Shown piece after piece: positions 7,804-64,000 of a stretch of DNA of 64,000 bases; within the stretch, counting starts at the first letter, position 1, and each line of letters starts with the position of its first letter. The DNA is from Margaritifera margaritifera (Eukaryota; Mollusca; Bivalvia; Unionida; Margaritiferidae). Both the position numbers and the translations under genes were made by a program. Under the pieces are notes generated by a model. The model made no database searches, was not told the origin of the DNA, and saw only the letters and a list, made by a program, of their open reading frames with translations. Location of the stretch: the NCBI GenBank assembly GCA_029931535.1, contig JAQPZY010001670.1, positions 7,874,501 through 7,938,500 on the forward strand, given 5' to 3'.

Positions 7804-7823
7804 AAGGAAATCAGCAATGGAAG

Positions 7824-8990: not shown

Positions 8991-9089
8991 TAGGGATAGA
9001 TAATGGTGAGCAGATAATGATGTTTTTGCTCATAGCGCCTCTAGAAGAGCCAGGATTCGATCTACCCAATCCAGTGGAACCCGGACCAA

Positions 9090-18220: not shown

Positions 18221-18359
18221 TGAATTTCTTTAAAGCATATTAGTGATATTAAATTTATCTTTGAAATTCATATTGATTTTGTCTCGGAGAATTTTTTTTG
18301 TCTTTGGCAAAGATTTTTAATAGAGAAATTTTTTTGTGTGAAACCAACAAGCATTTACA

Positions 18360-21192: not shown

Positions 21193-23152
21193 GGAATCAG
21201 TTCAAGAGTCGTTGGGTTTTAGTCCCTTTGAACTAGTTTTTGGTCATACTGTCCGTGGACCACTGAAATTATTGAAAGAGAAACTTCTTTCAAATGAAGA
21301 TTCAAAGATTAATCTTCTTGATTATGTTTCTGATTTCAAATACAAGTTGTCAAAGGCCTGTGAAGTAGCAAGAACTAATCTTCACAATATCCAGTCAAAA
21401 ATGAAATTAAGGTATGAAAGAAATTCACAGAAAAGGAGTTTTAAACCTGGTGACAAAGTTCTGGCTCTCTTTCCCATACCTCAAAATCCTCTTCAGGCTA
21501 AATTTTTTGGTCCTTATACCGTTGAAAAGAAAGTAAATGACTTAAATTATATCATTAACACTCCTGAGAGACGGAAACAGAAACAACTTTGTCATATAAA
21601 TATGTTAAAGGAATATTTTGACAGAGATAGCTCAGCTAATTATTCTGTTAATTTAGTTGTACCTGTCCCACACAGTGAAGATATCAACGATGGAGTACGA
21701 TCAGACTATAGTGACTCTGGTATAACCAATCTTCGGAATTCAGAAATATTGAATAACCTAGACCAGAAACTTTCACATCTACAACAACAGGAAAGAAATG
21801 AACTAAAACAGCTATTACATGACTATGAGCACTTGTTTCCTGATGTTCCAACACGAACAAGTAAAATTTATCATGACGTTGACATTGTAGATTCTGCGCC
21901 TGTGAAACAGCATCCTTATAGGATGAATCCTCTCAAACAGAACTATCTGAAGAAAGAAATTCAGTATTTACTGGAGAATGATTTCATAGAACCAAGTAAA
22001 AGTAACTGGAGTTCACCATGTATTCTTGTTCCCAAGCCAGATAATACATTCCGTATGTGTACTGACTATAGAAAAGTCAACAGTGTCACCAAAACTGATT
22101 CATTTCCAATCCCAAGAATGGACGATTGCATTGATAAAATTGGAAATGCGGAATATGTCACCAAGTTTGACCTTTTAAAAGGATTCTGGCAAATTCCACT
22201 GACGGAAAGGGCAAAAGAAATTTCAGCATTTGTAACTCCAGATGGACTTTATCAATATAAAGTCATGCCGTTTGGAATGAAAAATTCGCCTGCAACGTTT
22301 CAACGTCTGATGAACATGATAACATTTGGTCTTGGTAATTGTGACGCTTATATCGATGACGTCATTATCTACAACAACACCTGGGAAGATCATTTGGAAG
22401 CCATTCGAAAATTCTTTGATCGACTCAGCGATGTGAATCTGACAATTAATTTGAGCAAAAGTGAGTTTTGCCATGCTTGTGTCACATTTTTAGGACATAT
22501 TGTGGGACAAGGTCAAGTTAACCCTATAGAAGCTAAGGTCAAAGCTATCTCTGAATTTCAAGTTCCAATTTGTAAAAAGCAACTGATGCGATTTCTAGGT
22601 ATGGCTGGATATTATCGAAAATTTTGTTCCAATTTTTCCAAAATTGCTGAACCTTTGACAAGTTTATTGAGTAAGAAAGCCAAATTTTATTGGTCTGACA
22701 AGTGTCAGGAATCTTTTGACAAGTTAAAGGGCATGCTTAAGAATGCACCAGTTCTTTCTGCACCAAATTTTAGCCAATCATTTAAATTATCTGTTGATGC
22801 AAGTGATGTAGGGGTTGGTGGAGTATTGATTCAGGAAGACAAAAGTGGTGTGGATCACCCTGTGTGTTATTTTTCTAAAAAACTAAACAAGCACCAGAAA
22901 AATTATTCCACAATTGAGAAGGAATGTTTGGCTTTGATATTGGCTTTACAGCATTTTGAAGTGTATGTCACCTCAGCTCTTTCTCCAATTATTGTGTACA
23001 GTGATCACAATCCCCTTACTTTCATCAACAAAATGAAAGATAAAAATAGGAGATTGTTGAGATGGAGTTTGATATTGCAAGAATATAACATTGACATCAA
23101 ACACATCAGGGGAAAAGACAATGTGATTGCAGATGCACTCTCACGTGCCTAG
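21152..23152 (+). CDS. integrase C-terminus, reverse transcriptase and RNase H
   Basis: 666 residues, continuing the previous ORF after a frame break. Residues about 9-40 (FAVRESVQESLGFSPFELVF) finish the integrase core. An integrase tail with KPGDKVLALFPIP follows. RT begins near residue 250 (YRMNPLKQNYLKKEI): LVPKPDNTFRMCTDYRKVN, VTKFDLLKGFWQIPL, PFGMKNSPATFQRLMN, and the catalytic YIDDVIIY near 400. RNase H has SVDASDVGVGGVLIQ near 547 and STIEKECLALILAL. It ends DNVIADALSRA at the stop. All catalytic residues are intact. No envelope gene follows. Confidence 0.94.
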   Translation: MIQKMIHLLLFAVRESVQESLGFSPFELVFGHTVRGPLKLLKEKLLSNEDSKINLLDYVSDFKYKLSKACEVARTNLHNIQSKMKLRYERNSQKRSFKPGDKVLALFPIPQNPLQAKFFGPYTVEKKVNDLNYIINTPERRKQKQLCHINMLKEYFDRDSSANYSVNLVVPVPHSEDINDGVRSDYSDSGITNLRNSEILNNLDQKLSHLQQQERNELKQLLHDYEHLFPDVPTRTSKIYHDVDIVDSAPVKQHPYRMNPLKQNYLKKEIQYLLENDFIEPSKSNWSSPCILVPKPDNTFRMCTDYRKVNSVTKTDSFPIPRMDDCIDKIGNAEYVTKFDLLKGFWQIPLTERAKEISAFVTPDGLYQYKVMPFGMKNSPATFQRLMNMITFGLGNCDAYIDDVIIYNNTWEDHLEAIRKFFDRLSDVNLTINLSKSEFCHACVTFLGHIVGQGQVNPIEAKVKAISEFQVPICKKQLMRFLGMAGYYRKFCSNFSKIAEPLTSLLSKKAKFYWSDKCQESFDKLKGMLKNAPVLSAPNFSQSFKLSVDASDVGVGGVLIQEDKSGVDHPVCYFSKKLNKHQKNYSTIEKECLALILALQHFEVYVTSALSPIIVYSDHNPLTFINKMKDKNRRLLRWSLILQEYNIDIKHIRGKDNVIADALSRA

Positions 23153-31419: not shown

Positions 31420-33450
31420 CTGACTTTAGTTGGCTCATGCCCAATCATACAAATTGTTAAGAATTCCCATAGCTTTGACCTGCCATATTTTTCATCAACT
31501 CGTATATTGCCTTCGCAATCAATGTTGTCTCACGATTGGCATAACGTATCTATTTGGTATCACGTTAAATCCTCCTCTAATTCCAGATTCAATCACCAGA
31601 AAGATATTATAGTCTAGACGTAATTAGAATTCTTCTTTCCTTAATTTTAAACCAGCATCAAGTGCTAGTTCCAGTGAACTGTAATAAATGTGCTGGATAT
31701 AATTTATAATTATTCATGCAGATATTCCTAAACCCTTCAAAAATGTCAATGATGTAAACTATCTTTTCTGCTTTAGTGGTCAGGTAAGTCACCAAGAGAT
31801 TTGAATTTAAATCCTTCATGGCATCTAGTACATACATGTAATCGTTCATCTCTTATCCATGGCCCTCGAAGACTCCAATACAATTTCTCTGTTTGTGCTA
31901 ATTTAGTTTTCTTAAACCTTTTAAAATCACCTAAGTACTCGTACGGATACATATCTTTTCCCAAAAATGTGGGTTTCATGTTTTGTAAATATTTCATGAT
32001 ACCAGTGAACTTGTCATCGTTTAGATTCTTTGCAAGTTATTCTAACGATTCTCTCATGAAGCAAAAACTATCTATGAATCTGCTTGTCCTATTTATAACA
32101 ACTTTACTGTCATTCTTTTAAACCAATAAGTTACGATATCCGTACTAAACGAAATGTAGTTTTCATCGTTATTTGCTATTATCGTCACATGTTGATCAGG
32201 CTCATGTTTTTGTTACCAGCTTCTTTATAAACAGATGAGAATCATGACCTGACAAATTGTGGATAAGGAGTGGTATATACTTTGAATTTAAATTACATTT
32301 GTTATGTGCAGAACGCCGGTGAAAGAATCATGATTTGTTACTTTGTTGTGAGTTCCTTTTCACAAATATGACATATGTTGGTCGAATTAAAGTGCTATCT
32401 CCCTTTGTGAATATCATTTCATCAGTTTTTCTTGGTCTAAGTTCTTCGTATTCAGTGCTGCAATTGTCTGCACGTCGTCGCAAAACTTTCTTATGAAGTC
32501 TCTTCCTTTGTGTGTTTTATCACATATTATACGGTATAAAGAAACATTTTATATCTTTATTCTGAACGTTAATACAAGCACTGTTCTCTTTCACCAATTG
32601 TGGTAACTTTGTGTATGATCTTCTTCTCATTAGAGAGTGTCTATCTACATGTAAATTCAAATAATCCGTCCTACCAAAATACCAATTTGTTCCTGTATTT
32701 ATTTCCTGATCAAATTTTGAGCGTAGCATATCAAACAGCCTATCAGTTACTTTTTGCGTTTCATTTCTGCTTAGGATGTTTGAAGCGTTTGCTATGTGAT
32801 ACCATTCCCCGAACAAATGTTCTACGTTCTTTTCTAATTACGACTGTAATCTCTCAATCTAGAGTTGATTTTAACAGAACAAAACTTGTAAGTTTTCTAC
32901 GTATTATCTTCTCTGAGTATGGTTAAATCTTATAAAAAAATTGTTTACAAAAAAAACCCAAGTACAAATCTTCATCATTTCCACGAAAAATGTTACATCT
33001 CTATTAAACGCGTTCTGAAGCCATATCTATGCTACAATGTTAAATCTCTATTAAACGGGTTCTGAAGCCATCTGGTGATATCTATGCTTCTATTTCGCTT
33101 GTTTATTTTATTAATTTCCCCTCTAGATGAAAGACGGATTGTTATTTTTTCCTGTGGTGCTTGTCGTTTTAGAATCAAGAATTGAAGAAATTTATATAGT
33201 ACTATTTTTTCAATAAAAAATGTAGTTGAAATTTATTCTTCCTGTGGTTATACACGTATCTTCTTGAAAGGAGCATTATTTTCATTACGATACCAATTTG
33301 ATCTTATCAAGTTAACACACTCTTTACATCTCTCGTCTAGAGCCATTTCATCTGGTCGACATTTACTTACCATGCTATTTACATATGAATCTGGACGATT
33401 GTTCTTGTTCTCTAATAGCATTGTGCCATACACACCGTATTAGGTTTTCC
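31420..33450 (-). pseudogene. Polinton/Maverick protein-primed DNA polymerase B remnant
   Basis: Minus-strand pieces follow polymerase order. MALDERCKECVNLIRSNWYR (about 33350) comes first, then WYFGRTDYLNLHVDRHSLM and SACINVQNKDIKCFFIP (32700-32535). The exonuclease-side segment is MYPYEYLGDFKRFKKTKLA (31950) to IIDIFEGFRNICMNNYKLYP (31700). Last comes IFLVIESGIRGGFNVIPNR (31600), with a degraded motif A, MGILNNLYDWA (31460), in which the catalytic aspartate is missing. The order and spacing match the plus-strand fragment at 46.3-47.8 kb. Many stops; dead. Confidence 0.78.
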
Positions 33451-46339: not shown

Positions 46340-47780
46340 ATGGATGTAAGAAATCTTCGTTTCATCCTGCAGCGACATGCTTTTAATGAGTACGATAAAA
46401 CCTATATTGTTGACCTAGACGAGTTAAGACCATTTGACATTTTGTCCTGGGCAACTGAACCAGAAATAGGAGACATTCTGTACAATTAGTTGCGAGTGCA
46501 ACATGGAATTAAATGCTCGATTGGTATTGGCGAAGCATTGAAAAACTTGATGGCACCGAAACAGATGCGTTTTTTAATACGAAGCCAATTCGAGCTTTTG
46601 ATAACATCGACTTCAGATATGTCTTTGGAATACTTAGAAATATGATTGATAAATTTCAACGCAAAGAATCTGGTTGGATTTTACATAGCGCTTTTACCAT
46701 GTCGCTAAGGGTATCAAAATATAATCCATTACGTCCAAAGTCCTTTATAGAACTTCCTGCAAAAGTGAAAAATTGCAAAAGTCGAATCAACGTCGAAAAC
46801 ATTGATAATTTTTTTTTCTTATGTCGGCTGTTATCAGCGCTTCATTCAGCAACAACAAAATATCCAAATCAAATAGGCATTTATGTAGCATTTCAAGATA
46901 CTCTCAATTTTACCGGAATCGAGTTTCCTGTTCAAATAAATGACATTTGAAAGCTTGAAAAATTAAATTTGATTTCGTTGAATGTTTTCGGCAACAACGA
47001 CAAAGGCTACATTTATCCGCTTTATGTCTCTGCCATTAATGACAGAGTCATTTGCTGCGATAGCAACATTGTTGCCGAAGTTGATTTGCTTTATGTGCAC
47101 AAAGACACCCAAGAGAGCCACTATTTTTGGGTCAACATTTTTGTCTAGGTTAAGCTTACTTTAGCTTACTTTAGAAAGTTGAATACGTAACAAAAATTTC
47201 ACAAGCAAAACACATTTATACAGCTGAATTTATTCCTCGGGTGCTGAATTTATTCCTCGGGTGCTGCATAATGTTCGTGGCTATGAATCACATTTAATCG
47301 TAAAACACTTTGAAAAAATTCCCTTAAAAATAACGTGCATTCCAAACAACGTGGACAAATATTTATCATTTTCTCTTGGCGCGCTACTTTTCATCTATAG
47401 TCTCCAATTTATGAATAACTCGCTAGATGAACTTGTCAAAAATACAAAAATATTTAACCATACAGCAGAAGAATTCCCCGATGACAAACTTCATTTGATT
47501 ACGCGCAAAGGAGTTTATTCATACGATTACATGTCATCTTGGGAAATATTTCGGGAAACACATCTGCCTGCCAAGGAAGCCTTCTACACTCAGCCAAGCG
47601 GAATAAATATTTCTGGTGAAGATTATAATTATGCCCGCAAAGTGTGGAATAAATTTGACATCCGAAATCTTGGCGACTATCACGATTTGTATCTGAAAAA
47701 GAATGTGCTGCTGCTGGCTGATGTTTTTGAAAATTTCAGTGATATTTGCATGTCCTATTACAAATTTGACCCTGCTTAAA
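46340..47780 (+). pseudogene. Polinton-like DNA polymerase B fragment
   Basis: 46340-46489 encodes MDVRNLRFILQRHAFNEYDK, a plausible N-terminus. 46513-46950 has ESGWILHSAFTMSLRVSKYN, PLRPKSFIELPAKVKNCKS and ENIDNFFFLC. About 46985-47150 has KGYIYPLYVSAINDRVICC and DLLYVHKDTQESHYFWV. 47261-47779 has VRGYESHLIVKHF, CIPNNVDKYLSFSLG, then YDYMSSWEIFRETHLPAKEA and LGDYHDLYLKKNVLLLADVF. This covers the N-terminal and 3'-5' exonuclease parts of a protein-primed family B polymerase. It stops at YYKFDPA before the palm motifs. Frame changes occur near 46500 and 46960. Confidence 0.8.
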
Positions 47781-50590: not shown

Positions 50591-51026
50591 CATCACGATC
50601 TGTAGGGATGAGTATTGTGGGGGGGGGGGGGGAGAGCTTGGAGTAGCTTCGTTTGCTGAACGCAGCAAAAATCTCAATGTCTCTCGATCAAAGTTGAGAA
50701 TAGAAATGAAGTCGGAGAGGCATTGCTCTTTTTATATATCAGTCAGTATAAACTGTAGCTTAAAGTTTCCTAATTAGTTCGTGTGGATGTGTCACAATTA
50801 CAGAAAATACTCAGTCCGTATCAATAAAATAAGCGGCAATCAACTCTGTGAACTAAATGGACTACAATATAATCTAATGATCTCAGTTCCTTTAGGGTGG
50901 AAAACATTGCATAGAGGGCTTATATACCCAAGCCCGATTATTGGACGCAGTCAAAAAACGAAGTGCAGGATTCTACCGCACCTAACGCTAATAACCCGTT
51001 AGCATCGCATAACATTTTGTGCCTTA

Positions 51027-52380
51027 ATGGAGGAAGGAGGCTCCGGGAAAACATCACGCGCGATAGCCATTTTTGTGCAGCTATCATCATTTGCTAGTTC
51101 TCACGCCAACGCATAGGCTAGAAAAGGAAATGCGCGATAGAAATGTTCGTGAACAAAGGTATCACAGCTTCTTGTGCTGGAATGGTTTCCCAATAGCGAA
51201 GTGGGGACCGGAACGTATGGGACAAAATATATTCCGCGGGTTATTATCTGGGATGAAATTTGCACAGTTTCCGACCGCATTCTTGAAACCTTTTTAGGGT
51301 GGCTTGAAATGCTCAGGTTATGTGCTGCGGGGACCATGGTCAACCTCCGTCTATTGACGGAGAGCAGTCGCACGACTGGTTGAAAGAGCACTCGGATTAC
51401 TATGAAGCTGTAGAGGAAGACTACCGCACCAAAACGGAGGCTCTTAAAAATTTGAAAAAGAGGAAGCGGCTAACACCTGACAAAATCCAGGTTAAGGAAA
51501 TGCGGAAGGCCCTTCAGACATAGCGCGACTGAACTACTTTCTGGAAAAATAGACCCCCGCCGACCTTCAGGTTTATTTTCGCAATGCTGTGCGGGATAGA
51601 GTTCAGCAGCTTTTGCTTGAGCATCATAAAGAGAAGTTTTCCGAACATCCCCGTGCCTCTCATATACTATCCGTATGATAGCAGGCGCAAGAATCTTTTA
51701 GTCACAATTCCCGGGACGACAAAGAAGCAAGAGCTTATAAAAAAAGTGACAGCGTTGAGGTAACCATCGCATCCGCAGAACAGGCCATTGCAAATGGCGA
51801 ATTGGCAATTAAAACAGCAGAGAAAGAAAATAGGGAAAATGGAGGCAAATTTGGCGCTTAGGCTCCGCCATCACTATACACAGCTCCCAAGGGCTTACCA
51901 TTAAAAATCCGAAAAAAATTGGTGACGACTATTGTCAATGATCAAATCTCGCGTATCTGGTGGTATCCCATGTGGAGTACCTGTCTCAGCTTGAGCGTAT
52001 CGCCGCGCCACAGGTTGTGGGGGCCACAGTAAAGCGTGAGCTAACTGACCAGGAAATCCGCAAGGTTATCCTACAAAAGCCTCTTTCTTACGCGCAGCAA
52101 GATAAGACTCAAAAAGTCCAAAGACCAACGCCAGAAACTACGTTAAAGGTCGACGATGTGCTAGACCTTAAGCAGCAGCAACATAATCGTGGTGCTGCCT
52201 ATAACATAGAAATGCTTTGGGCGTACGAGCCAAGAGACTTGCAGCAGTTTAGTGTAGAGCGCCTGGACAACAGGAAGGGCTAGTGAAGAAAAATGTTAGG
52301 TTGACCCGTTTGAAGTACAACCGAAAGAGAGGGGCTACATCATTTTGACCCGCAGCAAAGCAATGTAGTGGTTTCGACCT
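51027..52380 (+). pseudogene. superfamily 1 DNA helicase fused to HNH nuclease, broken
   Basis: Three frames together carry the SF1 motifs in order. They are: Walker A GGSGKTSRAI (51039), motif Ia LTPTHRLEKEMRDR (51100), motif II KYIPRVIIWDEICTV (51230), motif III CCGDHGQPPSIDGE (51323), DWLKEHSDYYEAVEEDYR, motif V HSSQGLTIKNPKK (51882) and motif VI YLVVSHVEYLSQLERI (51955). Then LTDQEIRKVILQK leads into an HNH-like block: NIEMLWAYEPRDLQQFSVER, LDNRKG, NVRLTRLKYNRKRG (52200-52340). There the metal-binding cysteine positions read Tyr/Arg. A tryptophan-to-TGA stop precedes SNLAYL. Such proteins would unwind and nick DNA. Assignment to a named element family is uncertain. Confidence 0.65.
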
Positions 52381-52399
52381 CAACGACGTGTATCGTCTG

Positions 52400-53050
52400 A
52401 ATGACTAATGAGGACCTGTTCGGTTGTAATTGTGTGTCAGGGGGGCACAACCTGCAGCTCTTCACGCACAAACGCGCGCTTAGGCCCTGAATCGCCGGTG
52501 CTAAGTAGATAATATAGTACTGGCGAGCCAGATTTAGCAACCTCACGCTCAAACCTTTAAGGACCATATAAGGTCGGTAGCATGACGTTGTCCTCCTGCC
52601 AGCTCTCTAGCTGCATATAGGTACCGCACCCAGGTATTTGAGTCCAGGCGTTTCTCGGCCAGACCGATGTTGCAGGAGGCACCCGCATAGATGCAGCATG
52701 AATGGCATATACAGGTCTTTTGCCTGTCAGCCACGTTACCTAACCATTTAGGGCCGCCGAACCCACTTTGTAGTATGCTTTGCAGGCGCGCGAGCCGTCT
52801 TGGCTGCAAACAACATCTCCTGGGCGTGCTGGTGCCCAGCCGCTTGCCCATAGTACGGTTGAACCTCTCCACAATGCGCTGCACACGGTGGACGCTAGCC
52901 TAGCCCCGCCTCACCTGTATGTTGAGCTTGGCCGAGAGCTGCGACACATTAACAAACGCCCCGCCAACCATGAGATCAACCTCGGCTAATAGGAAGTCGT
53001 GATGATATTAGCAGGAATGATGCCTTGTTTAATTAACATGTCCTGTGTCA
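52400..53050 (-). pseudogene. probable retroviral-like integrase, broken
   Basis: Minus strand reads ADLMVGGAFVNVSQLSAKLN (about 52990-52925), then HRVQRIVERFNRTMGKRLG (52890-52840). The E-R-F-N-R-T block is the third catalytic position of DDE integrases, and the G-x-F-V-N segment before it fits the second. Upstream, ILTQDMLIKQGIIPANIITT-like residues can be read across frames. The rest (52840-52400) breaks into several frames. It converges tail-to-tail with the helicase-HNH gene. Confidence 0.5.
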
Positions 53051-53056
53051 AAAGGG

Positions 53057-53392
53057 TCACCGCTGTGATTGTAACGGCCTTTGCTGCATATTCAAAGTCC
53101 AGGCGTCCAAGAAATAGGCTGGTTCCATCTTAACAAGCGTTTGGCATAGTAAAGGAGGTTTAGAAAGTCTGGCGTACGATGGTGTGTAGATAACTTTTCC
53201 TGATATTTTGTACACTTGCAAGACTACTATTCCATATAAAAAGGGTAGGGCGTGCGCCTGCAGTGTTTGCCGTTCCTCCACGCCCGCTGCTTTTTGCCGT
53301 CGTTTCAGTTCTTTTGACAGTGAGACGCGGAATAAGCCGTACGCGAGACCAGCCGGTAAAGCTAGGTAGACCCAGGGAACATAAGATGGCAT
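53057..53392 (-). CDS. unrecognised 111-residue ORF
   Basis: Starts MPSYVPWVYLALPAGLAYGL, a possible membrane segment (about residues 5-22). A basic stretch KELKRRQKAAGVEERQT follows, then a hydrophobic FLYGIVVLQVYKISG. No family recognised. It shares strand with the integrase-like frame and the ORFs above, and could be one gene of the same element. Confidence 0.35.
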   Translation of the reverse strand: MPSYVPWVYLALPAGLAYGLFRVSLSKELKRRQKAAGVEERQTLQAHALPFLYGIVVLQVYKISGKVIYTPSYARLSKPPLLCQTLVKMEPAYFLDAWTLNMQQRPLQSQR

Positions 53393-53428
53393 AATTCTAT
53401 CTTGCCCGACTGTTTTAGCCGTTCTGTA

Positions 53429-53719
53429 CTATTCTTGTCGTCCCGATGGATTAAGCTGTTCCGACTGAGCGGCGGGAATGTCGGCCTTTTTTTTTTTTTT
53501 TTTTTCTTCTTCAGCCTGGCGTGGTTTGATCATAGCAGCAAGGTTTTTTTTACTGGCTGCAACCCCACCTCGATTTGTAACCTTAGTGACCTGCATCACT
53601 TCCTGCTGCAATTGTACAAGTTTCGACTTTGGTTCCGACATCGGTACTTCCGCGTTTCGCGAAAGCACTTGTGCTGGTTCCCGCAACTCCGTTGCTGGTT
53701 CCGAAGTCACACTATTCAT
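53429..53719 (-). CDS. unrecognised 96-residue charged ORF
   Basis: Residues 1-35 are Glu/Pro-rich (ATELREPAQVLSRNAEVPMS). A helix KLVQLQQEVMQVTKVTNRGG follows, and then a poly-lysine run encoded by a poly-T tract on the plus strand (53487-53505). Low complexity in part. No family recognised. Confidence 0.3.
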   Translation of the reverse strand: MNSVTSEPATELREPAQVLSRNAEVPMSEPKSKLVQLQQEVMQVTKVTNRGGVAASKKNLAAMIKPRQAEEEKKKKKKADIPAAQSEQLNPSGRQE

Positions 53720-53929
53720 CCTTTGAAAAAGATATTTTAAGTCTGCTTTTTTTCAACATGCCGGTAGGTTATCATGTCAGTTGCAATTGACGCTGGTACT
53801 GGACAGTACTTAAAATAGAGGTGGTTGCTGGTACTCGTTAAAGAGGCCTGGATGAGCGGATCCTTTGTATGTTGAGCTGCGCGCCCATCATGGTGTATAT
53901 GTACGCGTTCAACACGCCGTCTCTCTGGG

Positions 53930-54640
53930 CTGTTTTTTCCGATTTGCAGCGTTACGCCTTAGCTCGAGTTTTTCGTGTTCCTTCATTATCCGTGGAGAAT
54001 GTAGTACTCCGTCAATGTCATATCGATGACAAGGGCAAACTTGTTTTTGTAAAATCCTCAATGTCTGTCAACGGCAGCCCCGCGTCCTTGATAGATTCCC
54101 TTTCCATTATTTTTATGGCCTCTTCCCACTGCTGGTATCGCGCCTACCATGGGCATATATCTGGTTTGGGACACCCTTGATTGTCACCGACACTTTGATG
54201 ATAAAGAGGTTGTAAAAATGCTCAGTATCGCGTGCGAAATCAGCTGTTTGCGTAGGCTCTTCGAAGAGTATGGCTATCGCTTTCATACTTTTAGCGGGAG
54301 TGTTGAGCTGGATGTTGCACGTGCTGTCGCTCTTCTTCACCACCAGTAAGCATATGGTTTTCATCTATTGTGTTTGGATTGTTGGTCACTACAATGCAGA
54401 TCCGGGCTCGCTTTGCTTCAAGAGCGCGGCAGTGGAAGCGGAATGGGTCGAGTTTGTTGCCGTATTGAGACATCCTTTTGCAAGCTTGCTGTTCCAACAA
54501 CTTAATTGCGTGAATGGCGGTGCTATTGGAATCCATGTGCCCTTTCTTCATAGCTACATCACCTGCATAATAGCAAACCATGGCTGAAGGCGACATTGAG
54601 GTGGAGTGGAACTTCTGGCGGAGGCGGCACACTGCCAGCC
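53930..54640 (-). pseudogene. unrecognised protein in two frames, possible structural gene
   Basis: 54632-54291 reads SAMVCYYAGDVAMKKGHMDS, then IHAIKLLEQQACKRMSQYGN. 54364-54113 reads NIQLNTPAKSMKAIAILFEE, PTQTADFARDTEHFYN, then VSVTIKGVPNQIYAHG. QQWEEAIKIMERESIKDAGL continues in another frame to about 54060. The beta-strand-rich, Asn/Pro-containing middle is compatible with a capsid-like fold, but I cannot name the family. It sits at the head of the minus-strand gene set. Confidence 0.35.
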
Positions 54641-54649
54641 CGGGCGGTT

Positions 54650-55190
54650 AAACCAGATTCTGACGGACAGTAACCAACTTGATTTCACATAAAGCTCAAG
54701 TATTCTTTAACAGGAAACTTCATATGTTAGTGATTCATAGATATAGGATTTCTTTTGGAATGATTATATACGATTGGTGTTGAATTTAACGTCCTCTGTA
54801 ACACTCGGCTAAGACTTTGAACACAAAGGAAAAATTTTCTTATGCTCCAGCAAGCGTTTGAACTTTCCTGCCAGTTTTTAAATTCCCACAAATCATCGTT
54901 CAATTTCCGTTAAAAATAAAACTTTGATTTAAAATGTAAGCGGGGATTTGTATAGTGCCATTTAGTAGTTTTTAGCCACGTGATACAGCCTGCTCTGTAT
55001 AAATTAGGGACAACTGTAATTGCGATGGTAGTGTGGTATAAGGAAGAGCTTGAGTTAAGGCTTCCTATTGAAGTGATATAGTTTAAGCCACACAGCTGGA
55101 TCAAGCACATTTGATCGTACATTACGGAATAGGAGAACGCCGAGTTAGACGGATTTCAAAAGGTTAGGGACTAGGTCCTTCTTCGACAAG
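54650..55190. other. no gene seen
   Basis: AT-rich spacer between the helicase-HNH cluster and the LINE. The 70-residue minus frame at 54910-55122 has no recognisable features. Confidence 0.35.
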
Positions 55191-55199
55191 TAATAGAGA

Positions 55200-58100
55200 A
55201 CCTCGAGGATCGCAAAGACGCGCGGCGACTTTGTATTGCAAGTACGTTCTAAGGTCAGGTCAGGCTATGCCTGCTACCGTACGTAACAGTAGATGGTACT
55301 ACCTCCAACTGTTGACCCAGAGTGGACAGCTACACCTGGCTCCCTCTGGAAAGTCCAGTCTGGTGGATCAAGCGGTCAAGCAGATATGCTCATCCCCTCG
55401 TCTGTGAAGTCAGATGGCAAGAGCTGTGTGGACAGTGCATTGCATTGGCTCAGGTCCAGTAGGACATGATGGCCATCCACTGCATCCAGACATTGTCTTG
55501 CCACAGGATTCTGGATTCAGAAACGCACATAAATTCAACTCACGCGCAAGTCATAACACAATCCACAACCCCCCACCAGTTACCTTCTAGTCCTGCGGCG
55601 ATGGGCGAGCGGCTAAGCAGCAGGTGTGGATAGACCTGGAGCTGTAGCTGCAGACCTGTACAGGCTGCTCAGGGCATAGTGCTGCTTTTCACTGGACCGA
55701 AGCAGCAGTGAAACTTGGCAGCCCCGTGGGCGACTGAGCAGCCTTAATTAGGATCACATTGCTCACCTTCGTAGCATGAGGAAGGGGCTAGAAAAGGTGC
55801 CCTAAATATTGCCTGCTTCACCTTAACCCTGGTCAGCATACCGCGGCTGATGGGCGTCCAACCTTAACGGTCGAAAATCACACAAAGATATAGGAAACGT
55901 AACTCACTATCGGTGCTAAGAATGAGCACACACTAATCATCAGATGGACCAGAATGAAGAGCAGCTCTATTTGGTCATATTCAACATCCAGATAGCGGCC
56001 GTGAGTTAAACTCGCCTAGCTGAGAAAGGACAATTCACTGAAGTAAGAGTCAGGTACACCTGGTCTGAACTGGCCGAAGTAAAGAAGAGCAATGTGAAGC
56101 TGGTGTTGGGTTTGCATCATATTATAGCTAGATAGCAAGCTCAGAAAGCTCCCAAAGGGCGTGAATGACAGACTAATGCAGATGAGACGCCCACTGTCTG
56201 TAAGAAGAAATACAACTATCATCAGCGCCTATGCACCCACCATGACCAACCCATATGAGATCAAGGAGAAACTTTTTGAAGACCTTGAGTCTCATATCGC
56301 AGAAGTGCCGAAGGCACACAAGCTCTTCATCCTTGGTGATTTATAGAGTTGGCACAGATCACCAGACATGGCCAGGCGTCATGGCAAAAATTGCTTTCGC
56401 AAATGCAGCAACAACGTTCTCCTCCTACTGGGGATATTCGCTGAACATGACCTCTTAATCACCATCACTGAGTCTTCCGCCTGCCAAACCGCAACAAGAC
56501 CTCTTTGACGCACCCGCGCTCCAAGCACTGGCATCTCATTGACTAGGTCATCGCTAGGAGAAGAGGCAGGCAGGATATCCGAGTGACTAAGGCCATGAGA
56601 AGTGCAGAATGCTGGACTAACTACAGGCTCATGGTCTTCATGCTCAATATCCGGATTCAGAGTAGCAGACGACCACAAGGCAAAAAAGCGCCTAAAATGA
56701 TCAATTTCTACAAATTGAAACAGGAAAATGCGAAACAGGCGTTTGCTGAAAAACTGTATTGCCAACTAGTTGCAATTCATGCGAACTCTGATAACGTCGA
56801 GAACAATGGGCATTCTTTCGAGACTCTGTGTACTCGGCTGCATTCAAAACCCTTGGTCCCACCACAGGTAAACATCAAGATTGGTTCGATGAGAACGATG
56901 CTGACACACGGAGAGTACTGAACGAAAAACACCGGCTCCAAAACGTCTGTTTACAAATCAGCTCTTCATCAGCTAAAAAGGCAGACTTCAACAAAATCAA
57001 TATGATTGTCCAATGCAAACCCAGAGAGTTACAAGACTAATGGGTGAGAAATAGGATTGATGAGAGTCAGTCCGACGAAAACATCAATGACATGAAGAAC
57101 TTCTATGATGTTTTCAAGACAATATACAGGCCACAGTCATCTGGAACATCTCTAATATTGACTGCTGACGGTACCATACTGCTCACGGACAAAGAAAAGT
57201 TATTACAAAGATGGGCAAAGCACGTCAACAACATCCTCAATCTTCAATCATCTATTAGGGAGGAAACTGTTGATCGACTGTCCCAGGTCGAAATTAACAT
57301 ATCACTTGATAATCTTCCAACGCTGACTGAAACTGAGAAAGCAATTAACCTGCTGCCACATGGCAAAGCACCAGGAGCAGATGTTATAGCAACAGAATTC
57401 CACCTAGCCTGAGGCTCGAAATGGCCCAGAACGTTCCTAACTCTTCCAGGATGCATCCATCGTCCACTTGTACAAGCGCAAAGGCAACATACATTTTTGC
57501 GACAACCATCGGGGCATCTCCTTGCTCTCACTACCCGGCAAAATCATCGCCAGCATTCTGCTGCATCGCCATGATGTACATCACATTTGGTTGCCCAGAG
57601 AAATTCATGGTTATGGTTCTGCAATTCCATAATGACATGCTCTCTCACGTCGTGGACGATGGTGAGTCATCTGAACCATTCCCAGTAACCATTGAGTTAA
57701 GCAAGGCTGTATATTGGCCCCAACCCTCTTCAGTATCATGTTTTCTGCCATGCTTACAGGTGCCTTCTGTGACTTTATCACTGGGATCAACATCAGATAT
57801 CGGAGTCTACGGGCGAAGACGAAGTTACTGGAATTGACTGTTCCTGATCTCATATTTGCTGATGACTGTTCCCTGAATGGCATATAGAGTCTGACATGAA
57901 ACACTGTATGGACCATTTCTCTTCAGCTTGGTCTCAGAATCAGTATCAAGAAGACAGGCGATGCACCAACCTGCATCAGGAAAGCATTACGTAGATATGA
58001 TCATCACAGTGAATGGCCAAACCCTCCAGGCAGGGGAAAAGTTCACCTACCTTGACAGTACTCTGACGCGTGCAGTCCATATCGATGACAAAACCAACGG

Positions 58101-58790
58101 CAGAATTGCCAAAGCAAGCGTGGCCTTAGCATACTACGCACAAATGTGTGGGAATGCAAAGGCATCAGTCTGCAAACAAAACTGAAGGTCTACAAAGCCA
58201 TTACGTTGCCCACCCTGCTGTATGCATGCGAAACCTGGACGGTGTACAGACGCCATGACAAGATGCTGAACCATTTTACATGGGCTGCCTGATGAAACTG
58301 ATAAGAATGACACTTAGGTTCTTACATTGGCAGGCATTCCATGCATCCACACTCTGCTGATGAAATCACAGATGAGATGGGCAGGCCACGTCACTAGGAT
58401 GCTAGACGGACAACTGCCAAAGAAGATCTTCTACGACGAACTGAAGGTGGGAAAGCCATCTTAGTGAAGACAGAAGAAACGCTTCAAAGATTGACTCAAG
58501 TCATCCTTGAAACATGTCAACGTTGATCATGAGTCTTAGGAAGATCTCTCACGGATCGTTGCAGCTGTCGCAGTCTCATCCATACTGACACTACAGACTA
58601 TGAGCTAAGGAGAATTGCAGAGGCAATACAGGAGCGCGAGCAGCGTTAATATCGGAACTGCGGCACGTCCTCTGTTGATCAAGCAACCCCAAGCGGCATC
58701 TCCTGTCCAGTGTGCCACAGACAGTTCAGAGCACAAATTGGCCTGATCAGCCACTTGCGTGCTCACGGAAGCCAAACCATTTTGTGATGT
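55200..58790 (+). mobile_element. LINE with terminal C2H2 finger, decayed
   Basis: A GC-richer 5' region (55200-55925) leads into ORF2 pieces in order: endonuclease (55950-56450), linker (56583-57412), RT (57420-58100), thumb region (58180-58330) and C-terminal zinc finger (58704-58766). It is the same family as the minus-strand copy at 3340-4830. Numerous stops and frameshifts. Confidence 0.85.
55950..58787 (+). pseudogene. LINE ORF2: endonuclease, RT and C2H2 finger
   Basis: Endonuclease: RYTWSELAEVKKSNVKLVL, NDRLMQMRRPLSVRRNTTII, SAYAPTMTNPYEIKEKLFED, KAHKLFILGDL. Linker: FYDVFKTIYRPQSSGTSLIL, LLTDKEKLLQRWAKHVNNIL, TLTETEKAINLLPHGKAPGA. RT catalytic box VPDLIFADDCSLNG (GATGAC at 57861-57866, intact). 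Then FTYLDSTLTRAVHIDDKTNG and KAITLPTLLYACETWTVYRR. The ORF ends with CPVCHRQFRAQIGLISHLRAH, a C2H2 finger, and stops at 58785-58787. More than five frame breaks are visible. Confidence 0.87.
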
Positions 58791-58799
58791 TATGGTCAT

Positions 58800-60285
58800 C
58801 TTGGAACTCGAATGAAGAACAACACTTTCCAAGAATACAGATTTGAACTGAAAGTCACTCTTCTCATTTATTCGTCGCTCTCTATCTAGTAGAAAGAAGT
58901 AGAGCATGTTTCGCCAATTTAAAAATTTTAAATCGAAATTTTAAATTCTATCATTCTTTTACAAGAACATTTCTGGACCACTTCTTTTTTTAAAAAACAA
59001 AAATACCCCAAAGTCTTTGGATCATAGTGGTATTTCAGAGCTGGAAAATTATAGTATTTCTGTGCTGGACCATTAAAAAAATTTTCAAATCAAAATGTAG
59101 AATCCCGTATCTCGATACGAAGATATTCTAAAGAACAATACATGTTTCAAAGAATAAATAGAACATTTCTAAACCACTCATTTTTTTTCTTCTCATTATT
59201 TGAAAGAAAAAAGTCCCTCTACTCCCTAAACCACATTCTAATTTCTTGATTGTGCATTGAGGGGGGGGGGGCGCAAAAGTAGAATGAATTTTTTAAACAT
59301 AAATATTGGCAAAAAGCTATATTGTAATAGATTCAACAGTTTTCAGAGACGTGTTTGAACTATTGAATGAGTTTAGCATAAAGCAACAATCTCAGAAAAA
59401 AGACACCATGTGTTTATGTTTACAAGTTTGGATTAGATAAAAGTGTGGTGAATGCTTGTTGTGTTAGAAAATAACATGCAAGAAAATTATAAAAAATGAT
59501 TTGCCAATTTTACACATAAAAAAGATATCTTGCAACGTTTAAAAAGTTTCAGACTACATTCAATGATACTAACAACTGGATAAGCATTATCAATCGTAAA
59601 TAGCAATATAGTCAAAACAGTACGGTAAGATAAAGGAATGTGATGTGCATACATTTAAAAATTTTAAACGACTAAATTTACAGTACAAAGATCTCGTAAA
59701 TTTTGCAACCTCAGTCTACAAAGAATTAAATAAAGAACAGTAATAAAATTATGGGGAACAAAGTTCGATTTACAGCTGCACATGGTGACTCATTATATGA
59801 AGTAGCTGTTTTCGAATCATCCACAGGAATGACATAATTTGACATCAATTTGAAATCATTCATACGTTGAAAAGGCTTAAATAGAGTCAAATATTTGGCG
59901 AACGGTCACGTTTTAGCTGAAAAATGTTGAAAACCGCTTTAAAGTGAATAAAAACTGCTGAACCGTTTTAATCTCGATAGAGTTTTTCTTTACATTATCG
60001 TCCAGCTGGTTGTAAGAAAGTATCAATTCCTCATTATCATAAGAGATAACAACTTAAATATTGTGCATGAAATAGTCATACTTGCTTTATTTATACAAAA
60101 CCACTAGAAAATATAGGGTTCTTAAACTACGAGAGGGCTGGGGAAATAGTTTATTTTCACAGTTAACACACACGTAAGGAAATATGCTGCCTTGCCAAAG
60201 ATTTCGGTTAGAAAACACTAGATGTCTCAAATAGTTACTAAAGAGAATCTAAAATGTCAGAGTTTACAGCTCAATGTGATAGACT
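58800..60285. other. no gene seen
   Basis: AT-rich DNA without a recognisable exon. If the GPCR C-terminal exon follows its array, it should lie here or further left. Confidence 0.4.
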
Positions 60286-60289
60286 TGTT

Positions 60290-61391
60290 TATTGAAGACA
60301 TGTACCAGGTAACGTGTTTCGCAGCAAACAATAATGGACGTGTTTACTAAAGGTATGAACCATGTTATATGTTTTGCAGCATACAGAGATCGGTTTACTT
60401 TTTGAAGGAATGTACCATGTCATGTATGTTTTTCAACATAAAGTGACATACTTTATTTTTGAAGGAATGTATTGTGTCATGTGTTTTGCAGCACACAGTG
60501 GCAATTTTACTTCTTTAAAACATGTATCATGTCATGTGTTTTTGCAACACACAGTGACAACTATACTTCTGCAAGACATGTACCATGTCATACATTTTTG
60601 CAACACACAGTGACAACTTTACTTCTGTAAGACATATACCATGTCATGTGCCTTTTAGCACGCAGTGACTTACCTATTGAATGAATTTCCCATGCCATGT
60701 GTTTTATACTAACTTATTGAATGTTTAAATCTGGCTTCTGGCAGCTCACAGTAACAGACATTGTTAAAAGCATGCACCATATCATGTATTTTTGCAGCAT
60801 ATTGACGGAATTATGTATTAAAGGAATGCATCATGTAATGTATTTTGAAGCACAGAGTCAAAATACATTCTTTTTAAAGTATATATAATATCACTTGTTT
60901 TGTAACACTCAAAGACGGACTTACTTATTAAAGATCTGTATCATGTCACGCATTATACATGGCAGTAACATGACCGGCATATTTGTTGAACGCTAGAAAC
61001 ATGTCACGGTTTTACAGTACACAGTGACCGATATCATTGTTGAAGAGAATGTACTATATCATCTCATGTTTATCATGTACAACAGATACATTATTTGATG
61101 AGCATGTATCAAGTCAAACATATTACATACAGTGGCTAACAGAGTTTTTACGAAAACGTCTTTTATTTTGCATCGCCCAGTAGCCGACAATCGTACATAT
61201 TTGCTGAAGATTATGTACCATGGCATACTTTCAACACAAAATGACCGACATACCTTTCAAGGACTGCATATCGGATAATGTGTATAACAGCACACCGTGT
61301 CGAATATAACTATTAAAGAGCAACTGTTAGTCACACATATTACAACACATAAAGAACTGAATAATTGAACAACCTGTATCATGTCAAATTG
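60290..61391. repeat. degenerate ~55-bp intronic array
   Basis: About 18 diverged units. The plus-strand consensus is near GTGACTTACTTATTGAAGGA / ATGTACCATGTCATGTGTTT / TGCAGCACACA. On the minus (gene) strand many units carry AATAAGTAAGTCAC-like donor sequences. TTGTTGAAGAGAATGTA at 61037-61053 is identical to the end of the adjacent exon. Frames through it are not genes. Confidence 0.85.
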
Positions 61392-61397
61392 ACTTAC

Positions 61398-61604
61398 TTG
61401 TTGAAGAGAATGTAGACGATGCAGTTGAGGCTGGAGTGGAGGTGGACCAGAAAGGTGATGAACAGATGGATCTCCTCGGAGAAGCTGTTCGTTGTGTCGA
61501 TAGCAGTCACAATGACGTAGGGTGTCCAGCAGCTGAGAAACACCAAGAATACGACAAATAGAGTCCTAGAACTGCGGACGGTATCTCTCCTTGCTTTCCG
61601 CAAC
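61398..61604 (-). CDS. class A GPCR exon: TM6 and TM7
   Basis: 207-bp exon. The acceptor GGCTGAGCAG precedes 61604, and the donor GTAAGT follows 61398. Translation: a basic intracellular end RKARRDTVRSSR, TM6 TLFVVFLVFLSCWTPYVIV (the C-W-T-P turn of rhodopsin-class receptors), an extracellular DTTNSFSEE loop, and TM7 HSSLNCIVYILFNK (N-C-I-V-Y in place of N-P-x-x-Y). It enters with one base and leaves with two of a split codon, and fits the exon at 62261-62702 exactly. Without splicing the frame hits TAA at once, which supports the donor. Confidence 0.9.
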
Positions 61605-62260
61605 CTGCTCAGCCAGACATGAGAAAATTATGCGGGCAATACGATCATAATGTAACATTTCATTAAGTAATAGAAATTATCTTTGATTAACCAATATTAT
61701 TTTCAGATTAATCCCACCTGCCACAAATCGCTGACATATCTTTATCACTGTAAACTTTCAGCAGTTGTAATTTGTATAATTTTTACAGGTTAAAGTTGGG
61801 GGGTTTTTTGTGGAAGTGATTGGAATATATTGAATATCGTTAAAATAAGAAACAGTCCGCAGTGTACAGAATTAAACACTATGTGGCATTTAAAATGAAG
61901 AAACCCAACCTTGTACATGAGAGTAAACGACTAAATTTGTCTTCAGTACAATTTGAATTATTATAAAGTCATGTTACAGGTGAGAACAATTAACATGCAT
62001 GCAAAAAATGTTGTATACTCTACAGAATTATGCTGTCAATGCTTTGTATAAGATTGAACGAGTGAAAATGAAAGAGAAGGACAGATGAGATTGAAAATGC
62101 AATATATGACAATACCAGAATGCCGTCTTTATAATACACACCACCTGAAAAAATATAGGCTTTTTATCAGACTTAACATACATGAAGATTCAAAACTTGC
62201 GCAACTAAGAATTGATTTGCAAATAATGAGAGTATATAGAATATTCAAGATATGTCTCAC
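61605..62260 (-). other. GPCR intron
   Basis: 656 bp between donor GTGAGA (62260-62255) and acceptor CAG (61607-61605). Phase 2. No other feature. Confidence 0.85.
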
Positions 62261-62702
62261 CATAACGGGTCATCCTTATTAAGCTTGTATACACTCAACT
62301 TTCTGACCCAGATACGGCGAAAGATCAGCACGTACATAGTTCCCATGAATACTAGTGGCCCAGCAATCATAACAGTGGACACAAACAAAGAGTAGGAGAA
62401 GCTTGCAGTCCGGTTCAAGGTACACTGATGGGTCTTCTGATCGAAGTAATAACCGCCCCATCCAATAAAGTTTGGGAACTCCAAGAGAGAGGCCACAACC
62501 CAGCAGACGACGCACATGATGGTACAGAAGACATTGCTGTAGATCTTGTTGTAGATGTGGTTGTGGCAGAGAAAGACGTAGCGATTGACTGTCAGCATGG
62601 TCAGGTTAATGAAGGCACAGAAACACGCTGTCGTGCATATTGCTGCGATCATCTGGCATAACCACCACTGATTGTGAAACCAAACCTCTCCTTTAATAAC
62701 TC
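62261..62702 (-). CDS. class A GPCR exon: TM3 to TM5
   Basis: 442-bp exon. The acceptor ATTGTTCCAG ends at 62703, and the donor GTGAGA starts at 62260. It opens with extracellular loop 1 (WFHNQWWLCQM, with the conserved Trp and Cys). TM3 ends in LTMLTVNRYVFLCHN (N-R-Y for D-R-Y). TM4 is VCWVVASLLEFPNFIGWGGY, the second loop carries Cys (THQCTLNRT, a possible N-glycan site), and TM5 is SLFVSTVMIAGPLVFMGTMY. It ends on an intracellular RRIWVRKLSVYKLNKDD. The ICHN/VNRY and FPNFIGWG features recall the melatonin-receptor/moody-like group of invertebrate receptors, but the ligand is unknown. The 5' exons (N-terminus, TM1-2) should lie at higher coordinates, and were not recognised in 62703-64000. 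Confidence 0.9.
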
Positions 62703-64000
62703 CTGGAACAATAATGTATATAATTTGACCTAACACAACATATATTGTGTTTTATTGGCTAGTTTGGTTAAATTAATGCATGATATAATCCGGTATGGAG
62801 CAACTATTTGCCTGATACGAGCACGCATTCCGTGTCAGATACCAACGTGAGTAGTTATGGTGGAAGGTATGTGCATAAATGTGGGACACTATGTGGCTAC
62901 ATTTCCGTGGGATCGATATATTCTGAGGACAAGATCTTTCTTTTTTTTTTTGGGGGGGGGGGCGGGGAGGGGGGAGTGGAATGTACTGCGGGGGAAAGAG
63001 AAATTAAACATAATGGATGGGACACTATGCAAATATGACATTATGTATCACTATGGCGTTCTATGGATGTTTAACAAGGATAGGTCACTATGGGGATGTA
63101 TGGAAAATTTATGTGATGGATGACACTATGGGGATCAATGAAAATTAATAGTATGTGCCACTATGATAGCCTATGGACATTTAACCTGGGGCTAGACCAC
63201 ATGGATATATAGATAAATACAAACCTAATTACAGACAATGACTCACTCTTTAAAGACAAACACTCGTTCTTACAATCAAACACATATCCTTACCATCCAA
63301 CATGCTGATCGATAAGCAAGTTCATTGTCGACATTGTTTCAATGCACTCAATGACTTCCTTACAGATTGTCGTATTGATTAATATTTGCAAAGCGATAAA
63401 CAAGTTCGTTGTGAAATTTGTACCAATGCACTAAGGAACCTCATTAAAAATGCGTTTTGATAAAGGTTTCTATTGCGATGAGAAGGCTGGTTCATTACTT
63501 TTTTCAAATGAACTCGGTGACTTCTCAACATAATACCGTAATAATAATATATATTTGATAACTAAATTAGATATCACCAAACGGATTTATTGTTTGGTGT
63601 GCGGGGGTGTGGGATATTGTCCTTTTTTGTAAAACATTCATCCTCAATTATTTTACGTTTACAATATTTACATTTACGAAATGAAATACAGTTTAAAATA
63701 AAATGTTAAAAAATGTCTCCGCATTGGTGGATAACAAAAATTTTTCGTTTGAAATTTTTAAAAAAAATTTAATTTAAACTGAGGTCATTTTTTATTCACG
63801 AGAAGAAAAATATATATTTGCAAATAAAATGTCAGGTAAACTTTCAGTTTTATTTGCCTCTCGACTGAGCTATTGAGAAATACGACAGCGACATATTGCT
63901 CTATTTTGTGAAAACAAATTCACATGTTGTCAATTCGCCCTATTGTTTCGTGTACTTTTATACTGTAGAGAAGTTATATTTCTTTAAATCAAAATAATAA
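62703..64000. other. GPCR upstream intron or flank; degenerate repeats
   Basis: Contains a T/G homopolymer run at 62940-62977 and a loose repeat of CACTATGGGGATGTATGGA type at 63010-63180. No exon recognised. Confidence 0.4.

What the first reader, a model, noticed from the sequence alone, without database searches (positions are those of the whole stretch)
51027..54640. Helicase-HNH gene converging on an integrase-like gene: possible undescribed virus-like element
All main SF1 helicase motifs are followed by an HNH-like block in one gene (plus strand). A convergent minus-strand set has an integrase E-R-F-N-R-T block, a possible membrane protein, a charged protein and a larger unknown protein with VSVTIKGVPNQIYAHG. 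Helicase, nuclease, integrase and a possible structural protein together would make a self-replicating integrating DNA element distinct from the Polinton remnants here. I cannot show that all frames belong to one unit.
Basis: partly seen in the sequence, partly recalled or inferred. Interest (0 to 1): 0.75.

Follow-up and report, generated by a model that had tools for sequence, protein, structure and literature searches.

The report
Fossil Tlr1-type virus in animal DNA
A broken copy of an integrating DNA virus lies here, one of well over a hundred related copies in this animal's genome; its fused copying enzyme is of a type described so far mainly from single-celled hosts and their viruses, so the find extends a known kind of virus to animals.

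Summary
In detail: helicase motifs plus an HNH-like block (50918-52345, +) converge on an integrase, small membrane-type proteins, a charged protein and a larger protein (54473-52443, -). They form one unit: the 7 best other helicase loci all carry the convergent integrase within about 1 kb, and 150 other places in this genome match the helicase/HNH piece. The gene is the C-terminal part of a polymerase-palm/SF1-helicase/HNH fusion; fuller copies of the same family keep the front part, and the make-up matches the published 'Tlr1-like helicase' (pPolB-S1H) of Polinton-like viruses. The 'larger unknown protein' is, by homology, the major capsid protein. A sister family is a ~16.1-kb element with terminal inverted repeats, a double-jelly-roll capsid protein, packaging ATPase, integrase and an uninterrupted 1180-aa fusion frame; five of seven compared copies are 93-96% identical to the reference over 5.5-7.1 kb. 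The window copy is dead: truncated, frameshifted, with parts of integrase and capsid genes lost and no ATPase detected. The host is a metazoan (Wnt genes); named relatives are molluscs and glomeromycete fungi. The kind is known; no paper found in nine searches reports it in animals.

The parts
50918..52345 (+). C-terminal part of a pPolB-palm/SF1-helicase/HNH fusion (residues 716-1166 of P0010); front part (vOTU-like and palm) not found in the window; frameshifts and stops
   Evidence: tblastn of P0010/P0030/P0001, E to 7e-74; frames; 151 matches of one 113-aa piece in the same genome, itself included, 150 of 628 candidates scored
51036..51053 (+). helicase motif I (Walker A, GGSGKT)
   Evidence: translation; G-G-x-G-K-T in 20 of 20 aligned relatives
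51243..51257 (+). helicase motif II (Walker B, IIWDE)
   Evidence: translation; I-W-D-E in 20 of 20 aligned relatives
51326..51343 (+). helicase motif III (CGDHGQ)
   Evidence: translation; C-G-D-x-G-Q in 19 of the 19 relatives that cover it
52250..52345 (+). remnant of the HNH nuclease domain (decayed, split by a stop and a frame change)
   Evidence: the same region of P0010 (1084-1164) matches 26 of 50,697 phage records, 39.5% identity in the 20 listed, some annotated HNH endonuclease
52443..52989 (-). retrovirus-type (RVE) integrase, C-terminal part; the first ~144 residues not detected
   Evidence: tblastn of an uninterrupted sister-family integrase (L021:5157-6167), residues 145-325, E 4e-17; that relative matches Pfam rve E 1.3e-9; the front part is detectable in other copies such as L005, L007, L027, L038
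52990..53428 (-). one or two small membrane-type proteins (two in fuller copies, by reading of the pieces)
   Evidence: 72 matches in the same genome, itself included; pieces in L027, L030, L031, L040
53432..53752 (-). charged Lys/Glu-rich protein
   Evidence: 46 matches in the same genome, itself included
53740..53958 (-). deletion junction: end of the capsid gene joined to the tail of a downstream protein; an ATPase-like gene lying between them in fuller copies is not found here
   Evidence: the two halves match places about 1.1-1.2 kb apart in L030 and L040; pieces
53868..54473 (-). major capsid protein remnant (residues 1-43 and 253-415 of P0062; middle not found); holds VSVTIKGVPNQIYAHG
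   Evidence: tblastn E 8.7e-19, 1.2e-11 and 1.8e-10; 149 public relatives, 120 listed; Capsid_N weakly matched by 40 of 46 of them
54474..54647 (-). conserved stretch just upstream of the capsid gene (leader or N-terminal extension)
   Evidence: shared with L030 and L031

Best explanation
It is a dead, internally deleted copy of an endogenous Polinton-like virus of the Tlr1-helicase type, in a metazoan and probably molluscan genome. The living element would be linear double-stranded DNA that inserts with a retrovirus-type integrase (inferred from the integrase and, in the sister family, from TIRs and 5-bp flanking repeats), copies itself with one fused protein holding a vOTU-like region, a protein-primed polymerase palm, an SF1 helicase and an HNH nuclease (domains shown by motif or profile; polymerase activity inferred from the literature), and packs its DNA with an ATPase into shells of its own capsid protein (capsid by homology, particles inferred). 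The window copy keeps the helicase-HNH end, the integrase end, membrane-type and charged proteins and two parts of the capsid gene.
For: Window aligns to the fusion P0010 (716-1166, E 1e-72), an integrase and a capsid-type protein. Convergent integrase in 7 of 7 best other helicase loci; reversed queries 0 hits. Of 12 fetched 10-kb stretches of the window family (partly chosen for co-occurrence), 12 have an integrase match, 10 the fusion, 8 the capsid gene, 6 both fusion and capsid. Fuller copies keep the fusion's front part, e.g. L029 (P0010 residues 19-1122) and L040 (52-1166). Sister family: uninterrupted 1180-aa fusion frame with helicase matches E 9e-10 and 1.6e-8, beside rve integrase, PLA2-like protein and Pox_A32-type ATPase; DJR capsid E 1.9e-9; TIR; TSD-like flanks. 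In 20 of the 61 public fusions, motif A Asp 20/20, motif C A-T-D-S 18-19/20, vOTU-like Cys and His boxes 19/19 covering, as described for Tlr1-like helicases (PMC11071308 section 10). Wnt genes in the host genome.
Against: No structure could be predicted, so palm, vOTU and the window-family capsid fold rest on motifs and weak profiles: Capsid_N best E 2e-4, and P0062 below Pfam's cut-off; hhalign between the two capsid families E 0.0094, probability 4%; no PDB match better than E 0.86 for the capsid family. The window family's ATPase is a motif reading; Pfam gave nothing better than E 0.016. No relative in IMG/VR by pattern scans. The ends of the window family were not found. Two of 12 stretches lack the fusion (L030, L031), and in L030 a Polinton-type polymerase fragment lies where the fusion would be. 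In L032, L036 (the place of L003) the capsid piece is on the strand of the fusion, not opposite.
Confidence: 0.9

Rival explanations
1. A canonical Polinton/Maverick (own pPolB with exonuclease, integrase, capsid) that picked up a helicase, or a Polinton next to a helicase element.
For: RVE integrase, capsid and ATPase modules are shared with Polintons. Fragments read by eye as Polinton polymerase lie in the window, beside L021, and in two window-family stretches, in L030 right behind the integrase.
Against: The palm motifs lie inside the helicase gene itself, and window-family copies keep that front part. Queries of the polymerase fragments hit nothing inside the ends of the sister element; the one beside L021 begins beyond the TIR. 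These fragments had no Pfam match, so their naming is by eye.
Confidence: 0.06
2. A chance neighbourhood: a helicase relic and separately inserted integrase and capsid relics.
For: The window is crowded with transposons, and the frames are broken.
Against: Convergent order in 7 of 7 best helicase loci and in many 10-kb stretches; in public data two contig lengths (29,170 and 14,105) occur in both the fusion list and the capsid list.
Confidence: 0.01
3. A non-viral transposon (Helitron- or Ginger-like) that uses helicase and integrase without making particles.
For: SF1 helicase and RVE integrase each occur in transposons (recalled).
Against: Capsid-type gene in the same unit and a DJR capsid plus ATPase in the sister family. 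Helitron Rep motifs were not searched for.
Confidence: 0.03

Closest known systems
Tlr1 element of Tetrahymena and 'Tlr1-like helicases' (pPolB-S1H) of Polinton-like viruses and transpovirons (PMC11071308: passages and section 10 read; Krupovic 2016, PMC5499653, not held)
   Same: One protein with vOTU, protein-primed palm lacking the first Asp of motif C, SF1 helicase and a C-terminal homing-type nuclease; Tlr1 also has an RVE integrase.
   Different: Metazoan host; HNH at the C-terminus (Tlr1 itself is reported with GIY-YIG); the sister family carries a DUF5679/PLA2 protein; no relative in IMG/VR by our scans.
OmPLV of Oxyrrhis marina (PMC12721341, passages read)
   Same: Endogenous Polinton-like virus with SF1 helicase and pPolB in one protein, mostly fragmented copies.
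   Different: There the helicase is N-terminal to a full pPolB with exonuclease and no RVE integrase was detected; here the helicase follows the palm.
Maverick/Polinton and adintoviruses of animals (PMC10120064, PMC11071296, passages read)
   Same: Integrated in animal genomes; RVE integrase, capsid, ATPase.
   Different: They use a pPolB that is not fused to a helicase; this element uses a polymerase-helicase-HNH fusion.
HNH-helicase Polinton-like viruses of cryptophytes (PMC12220804, passages read)
   Same: HNH fused to helicase, next to an rve integrase in one group.
   Different: The paper reports the HNH unit fused N-terminally; here it is C-terminal.
HelPol replicase of some parvovirus-like and midsize viruses (PMC11071296, passages read)
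   Same: An unusual DNA polymerase in animal-associated contigs.
   Different: Relation to this fusion not tested.

Membership tests
Tlr1-like Polinton-like virus | pPolB palm fused to an SF1 helicase in one protein | tested here: met
   Motif A Asp 20/20, motif C T-D-S 18-19/20; helicase profiles in 20 of 20 at E <= 1, P0010 E 3.9e-10. Met by motif, not by structure. The window copy lacks the palm; other window-family copies keep that region.
Tlr1-like Polinton-like virus | first Asp of motif C (DTD) replaced | tested here: met
   A in 19 of 20, then T-D-S
Tlr1-like Polinton-like virus | vOTU protease domain before the palm | tested here: inconclusive
   N-C-V-A and H-N-x-H-A-W in 19 of the 19 members covering them; fold not modelled
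Tlr1-like Polinton-like virus | terminal-protein domain at the N-terminus | not testable with these tools
   structure prediction unavailable
Tlr1-like Polinton-like virus | no exonuclease domain | not tested
   no search for exonuclease motifs was made
Tlr1-like Polinton-like virus | C-terminal GIY-YIG or HNH nuclease | tested here: met
   HNH-type Cys and His residues 19-20 of 20; match to phage HNH endonucleases; Pfam HNH weak, 9 of 20, best E 0.036
Tlr1-like Polinton-like virus | double-jelly-roll major capsid protein | tested here: inconclusive
   Sister family DJR-like_dom E 1.9e-9. Window family: Capsid_N weak in 40 of 46, hhalign weak
Tlr1-like Polinton-like virus | packaging ATPase | tested here: inconclusive
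   Sister family Pox_A32 E 1.4e-6; window family motif reading only; not found in the window copy
Tlr1-like Polinton-like virus | terminal inverted repeats | tested here: inconclusive
   Present in the sister family; none around the window copy; window-family ends not found
canonical Polinton/Maverick | own pPolB, not fused to a helicase, as the element's replicase | tested here: not met
   Replicase is the fusion; polymerase-fragment queries hit nothing inside the sister element's ends. Against: such a fragment lies behind the integrase in L030
canonical Polinton/Maverick | RVE integrase | tested here: met
   Pfam rve E 1.3e-9 in L021; window remnant

The most novel reading that the evidence does not exclude
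A large undescribed lineage of Polinton-like viruses has infected molluscs: at least two families with very different capsid proteins share one polymerase-helicase-HNH/integrase module, swap replicases with Polintons, have left hundreds to thousands of copies in one animal genome, were active recently (sister copies mostly 93-96% identical), and crossed between animals and glomeromycete fungi.
Probability: 0.5. Interest if true: 0.7.

Novelty: new variant of a known kind. Interest (0 to 1): 0.55.

Why it matters
The passages read place Tlr1-type replicases in a ciliate, in Polinton-like viruses of algae and metagenomes, and in transpovirons. In one survey the metazoan capsid genes, cnidarian ones apart, fell in the Maverick-Polinton group, and its own assembly search left animals out (PMC10120064, passages). 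Finding this replicase in animal genomes in such numbers suggests that part of the DNA-virus record of animals has been missed, because the profile libraries tried here hardly recognise its polymerase or capsid.

Tried and rejected
Pfam and PHROGs on ten single window pieces: nothing better than E 0.03. Integrase piece against PDB: nothing better than E 0.92. IMG/VR scans with the integrase piece, the fusion alignment and the capsid alignment: no relative. GTDB contigs with the capsid alignment: none. Phage records: the window piece none, P0010 only its HNH part. Host naming by COX1 failed (no match); Wnt shows a metazoan; an HSP70 stretch could not be fetched. Considered and rejected: Helitron, Ginger, canonical Polinton, chance neighbourhood. 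Structure prediction could not be run. A tree of one window piece with 47 relatives (of 62 fusions, those with at least 86 aa aligned; 15 dropped) puts it beside P0042, P0004 and P0005 with support 80/85 and 80/88; it is a long branch and no starred set of up to half the rows holds it, so its nearest kin is unsure; the split from the sister family is starred, 99/90. Counts of copies depend on a cap of about 150 scored candidates per search. GC is 0.48 in the element against 0.354 in 1-50000 and 58500-64000, but other transposon-rich stretches of the window are as rich (0.50-0.52 at 8-12 kb, 0.45-0.47 at 54-58 kb), so GC is no evidence of foreign origin.
Full report
What is in the window. All are broken. 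Ten single pieces match nothing better than E 0.03 in Pfam or PHROGs.

One unit. The window lies in a 2.45-Gb genome. Matches there, the window itself included: a 113-aa helicase/HNH piece 151 (150 of 628 first-look candidates scored), the membrane frame 72 (150 of 229), the charged frame 46 (150 of 227), the frame around the start of the capsid gene 150 (150 of 638). Sixteen other loci were cut out by these searches. All 7 helicase loci (L002-L008) have an integrase converging within about 1 kb. All 3 charged-protein loci have the membrane piece and the capsid-gene tail piece, and 2 of them the integrase. Of the 3 membrane-protein loci, 2 have charged-protein pieces, 2 integrase pieces (one of them partly turned round) and 2 the tail piece. 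The 3 capsid loci are too short to tell. Departures: in L003 a capsid piece lies on the strand of the helicase, just before it, and in L012 a fusion piece lies on the strand of the membrane gene. Reversed queries gave 0 hits (all).

Fuller copies. Twenty 10-kb stretches were fetched, partly because co-occurrence was already visible, so they are no unbiased sample. Eight belong to a sister family. Of the 12 of the window family, 12 have an integrase match, 10 the fusion, 8 the capsid gene and 6 both fusion and capsid. L027, L038 and L040 show the complete convergent order capsid - charged - membrane - integrase against helicase. L032 and L036 have the capsid piece on the strand of the fusion. 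L030 and L031 lack the fusion; in L030 a fragment that I read as Polinton polymerase lies behind the integrase, and L037 has one further off. This may be a replicase swap or a neighbouring element; it is open. In L030 and L040 about 1.1-1.2 kb lies between two pieces that touch each other in the window; it reads as a P-loop ATPase followed by the start of another protein, but Pfam does not confirm the ATPase.

The fusion gene. A sister-family copy holds an uninterrupted 1180-aa frame whose last part is homologous to the window's gene (L021). It matches helicase profiles (AAA_19 E 9e-10, AAA_30 E 1.6e-8) and is followed, on the other strand, by an rve integrase (E 1.3e-9) and a DUF5679/PLA2-like protein (E 4e-12, 4.6e-12), then a Pox_A32-type ATPase (E 1.4e-6). 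Sixty-one public relatives were found for its residues 380-1180 among the 7996 candidates scored; the named ones are from the sea slug Elysia crispata (a mollusc), from the fungi Gigaspora, Racocetra, Cetraspora and Diversispora, and from a Thiodiazotropha MAG, which I take to be clam-host DNA (inference). In 20 of the 61, aligned, the motif A aspartate is invariant, motif C reads A-T-D-S in 18-19, Walker A and B are invariant at their core, vOTU-like Cys and His boxes hold in the 19 members covering them, and HNH-type Cys and His residues in 19-20. The labels of these motifs come from PMC11071308 and recall. Profile search places the helicase with PIF1 and RecD2; the HNH part matches phage HNH endonucleases. 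P0010 aligns to the window from residue 716 to 1166 only, while window-family copies such as L029 and L040 match it from residue 19 or 52 to 1122 or 1166.

The capsid protein. An open 355-aa frame from another copy (L045) has 149 public relatives; of the 120 listed many are 420-440 aa. Of 46 of these, aligned, 40 match Pfam Capsid_N, best E 2e-4, but P0062 itself falls below the curated cut-off; no PDB match better than E 0.86. The window keeps residues 1-43 and 253-415. With a 147-aa capsid piece of L030 the genome gives 2177 first-look candidates, of which 150 were scored and 150 matched. The sister family's capsid matches the double-jelly-roll domain PF21738 (E 1.9e-9) and has 46 public relatives, one on a chromosome-size record of the mussel Sinanodonta woodiana. 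Profile comparison of the two capsid families is co-linear but weak (E 0.0094, probability 4%). I call the window gene a major capsid protein by homology and context, with the fold untested.

The sister family gives the anatomy. Against the copy on C501, those on C602, C64, C940, C172 and C250 are 93-96% identical over one block of 5.5-7.1 kb each, with lower identity in shorter stretches beside it; one on C295 has 94% over 3.4 kb and 88% over 2.8 kb, and another on C295 is about 74%. On C501 a repeat at L041:1377-1501 is inverted and 97.6% identical at L021:7371-7493, so the element is about 16.1 kb. Flanks show GTTTT on both sides at C64, and AGACA against TGACA at C501, as expected for integrase insertion; only these two copies were seen at both ends. 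Its left part holds a weak adenovirus-type protease match (E 0.022) and the capsid gene, on C501 split over two frames. The Polinton-type polymerase fragment in L021 lies beyond the right end, and queries of it hit nothing inside the ends; its naming is by eye, for Pfam gave no match.

How it most likely works. Shown: gene content, order, repeats, family identity. Inferred: protein-primed copying by the fused polymerase-helicase, release of the primer protein by the vOTU-like region, nicking or homing by the HNH domain, particle formation, insertion by the integrase. The window copy can do none of this.

Known or new. Tlr1-like helicases are described as vOTU-palm-SF1 proteins with GIY-YIG or HNH at the C-terminus, in Polinton-like viruses and transpovirons (PMC11071308, passages and section 10). 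OmPLV has the reverse order (PMC12721341, passages). Cryptophyte viruses have HNH fused N-terminally (PMC12220804, passages). Animal elements in the passages read are Mavericks and adintoviruses with pPolB (PMC10120064, PMC11071296). PMC10328495 and PMC4642659 were read as passages. Nine searches, whose lists are capped at 20, showed no paper that by title or opening of abstract reports this fusion in animals. Two bivalve transposon papers that mention Mavericks and Polintons (PMC10294476, PMC8905726) were seen only in the listing; most subscription papers are not held; Krupovic 2016 (PMC5499653) could not be read. So the absence claim is limited. The host is a metazoan by its Wnt genes: 40 matches here, none in the 14 control genomes; that Wnt is confined to animals is recalled. 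It is not named; mollusc is a guess from the named relatives. In a tree of one window piece, the 5 fungal proteins that could be included (of 7 named) form one fully supported group inside the relatives (100/100), which hints at transfer between kingdoms.

Verdict. The copy itself is ordinary decay; the interest lies in the lineage. On re-checking I added the results against a simple picture (L003, L012, L030, L032, L036) and moved one point of confidence from the transposon rival to the Polinton rival; the other odds stand.

Noticed in passing
window 47330-47623 (+), within frame 47228-47779, and 31845-32081 (-): Fragments related to a Polinton-type polymerase piece of L021 (E 5e-17 and 9e-9), named by eye; separate from the element described. 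Frame 46513-46950 (+) also matches such a stretch in L037.
   Followed up: partly
L030:8388-8606 (-): Polinton-type polymerase fragment just behind the integrase, where other copies have the polymerase-helicase fusion: replicase swap or neighbour.
   Followed up: partly
window 18342-23152 (+): Long open frames of a Gypsy-type retroelement in which the integrase-like frame lies before the reverse-transcriptase frame, the order recalled for Gmr1-like elements (by eye).
   Followed up: no
window 7498-12219 (-): Frames that read like a DIRS-type element with a tyrosine-recombinase-like end (by eye).
   Followed up: no
window 55168-58185 (+): Decayed LINE-like endonuclease and reverse-transcriptase frames next to the element, by eye; Pfam found nothing in the four pieces tried there.
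   Followed up: partly
window 62257-62751 (-): Open frame reading like an exon of a seven-transmembrane receptor, by eye melatonin-receptor-like.
   Followed up: no
L022:7572-8144: Free-standing HNH_3 gene (E 1e-16) beside the sister family's fusion gene, on the opposite strand.
   Followed up: no
L021:6168-6698: DUF5679 joined to a parvovirus-type phospholipase A2 domain in the sister family.
   Followed up: no
   Followed up: partly
G000:C78:8091193-8091435: Another helicase/HNH piece about 165 kb from the window's on the same contig.
   Followed up: no
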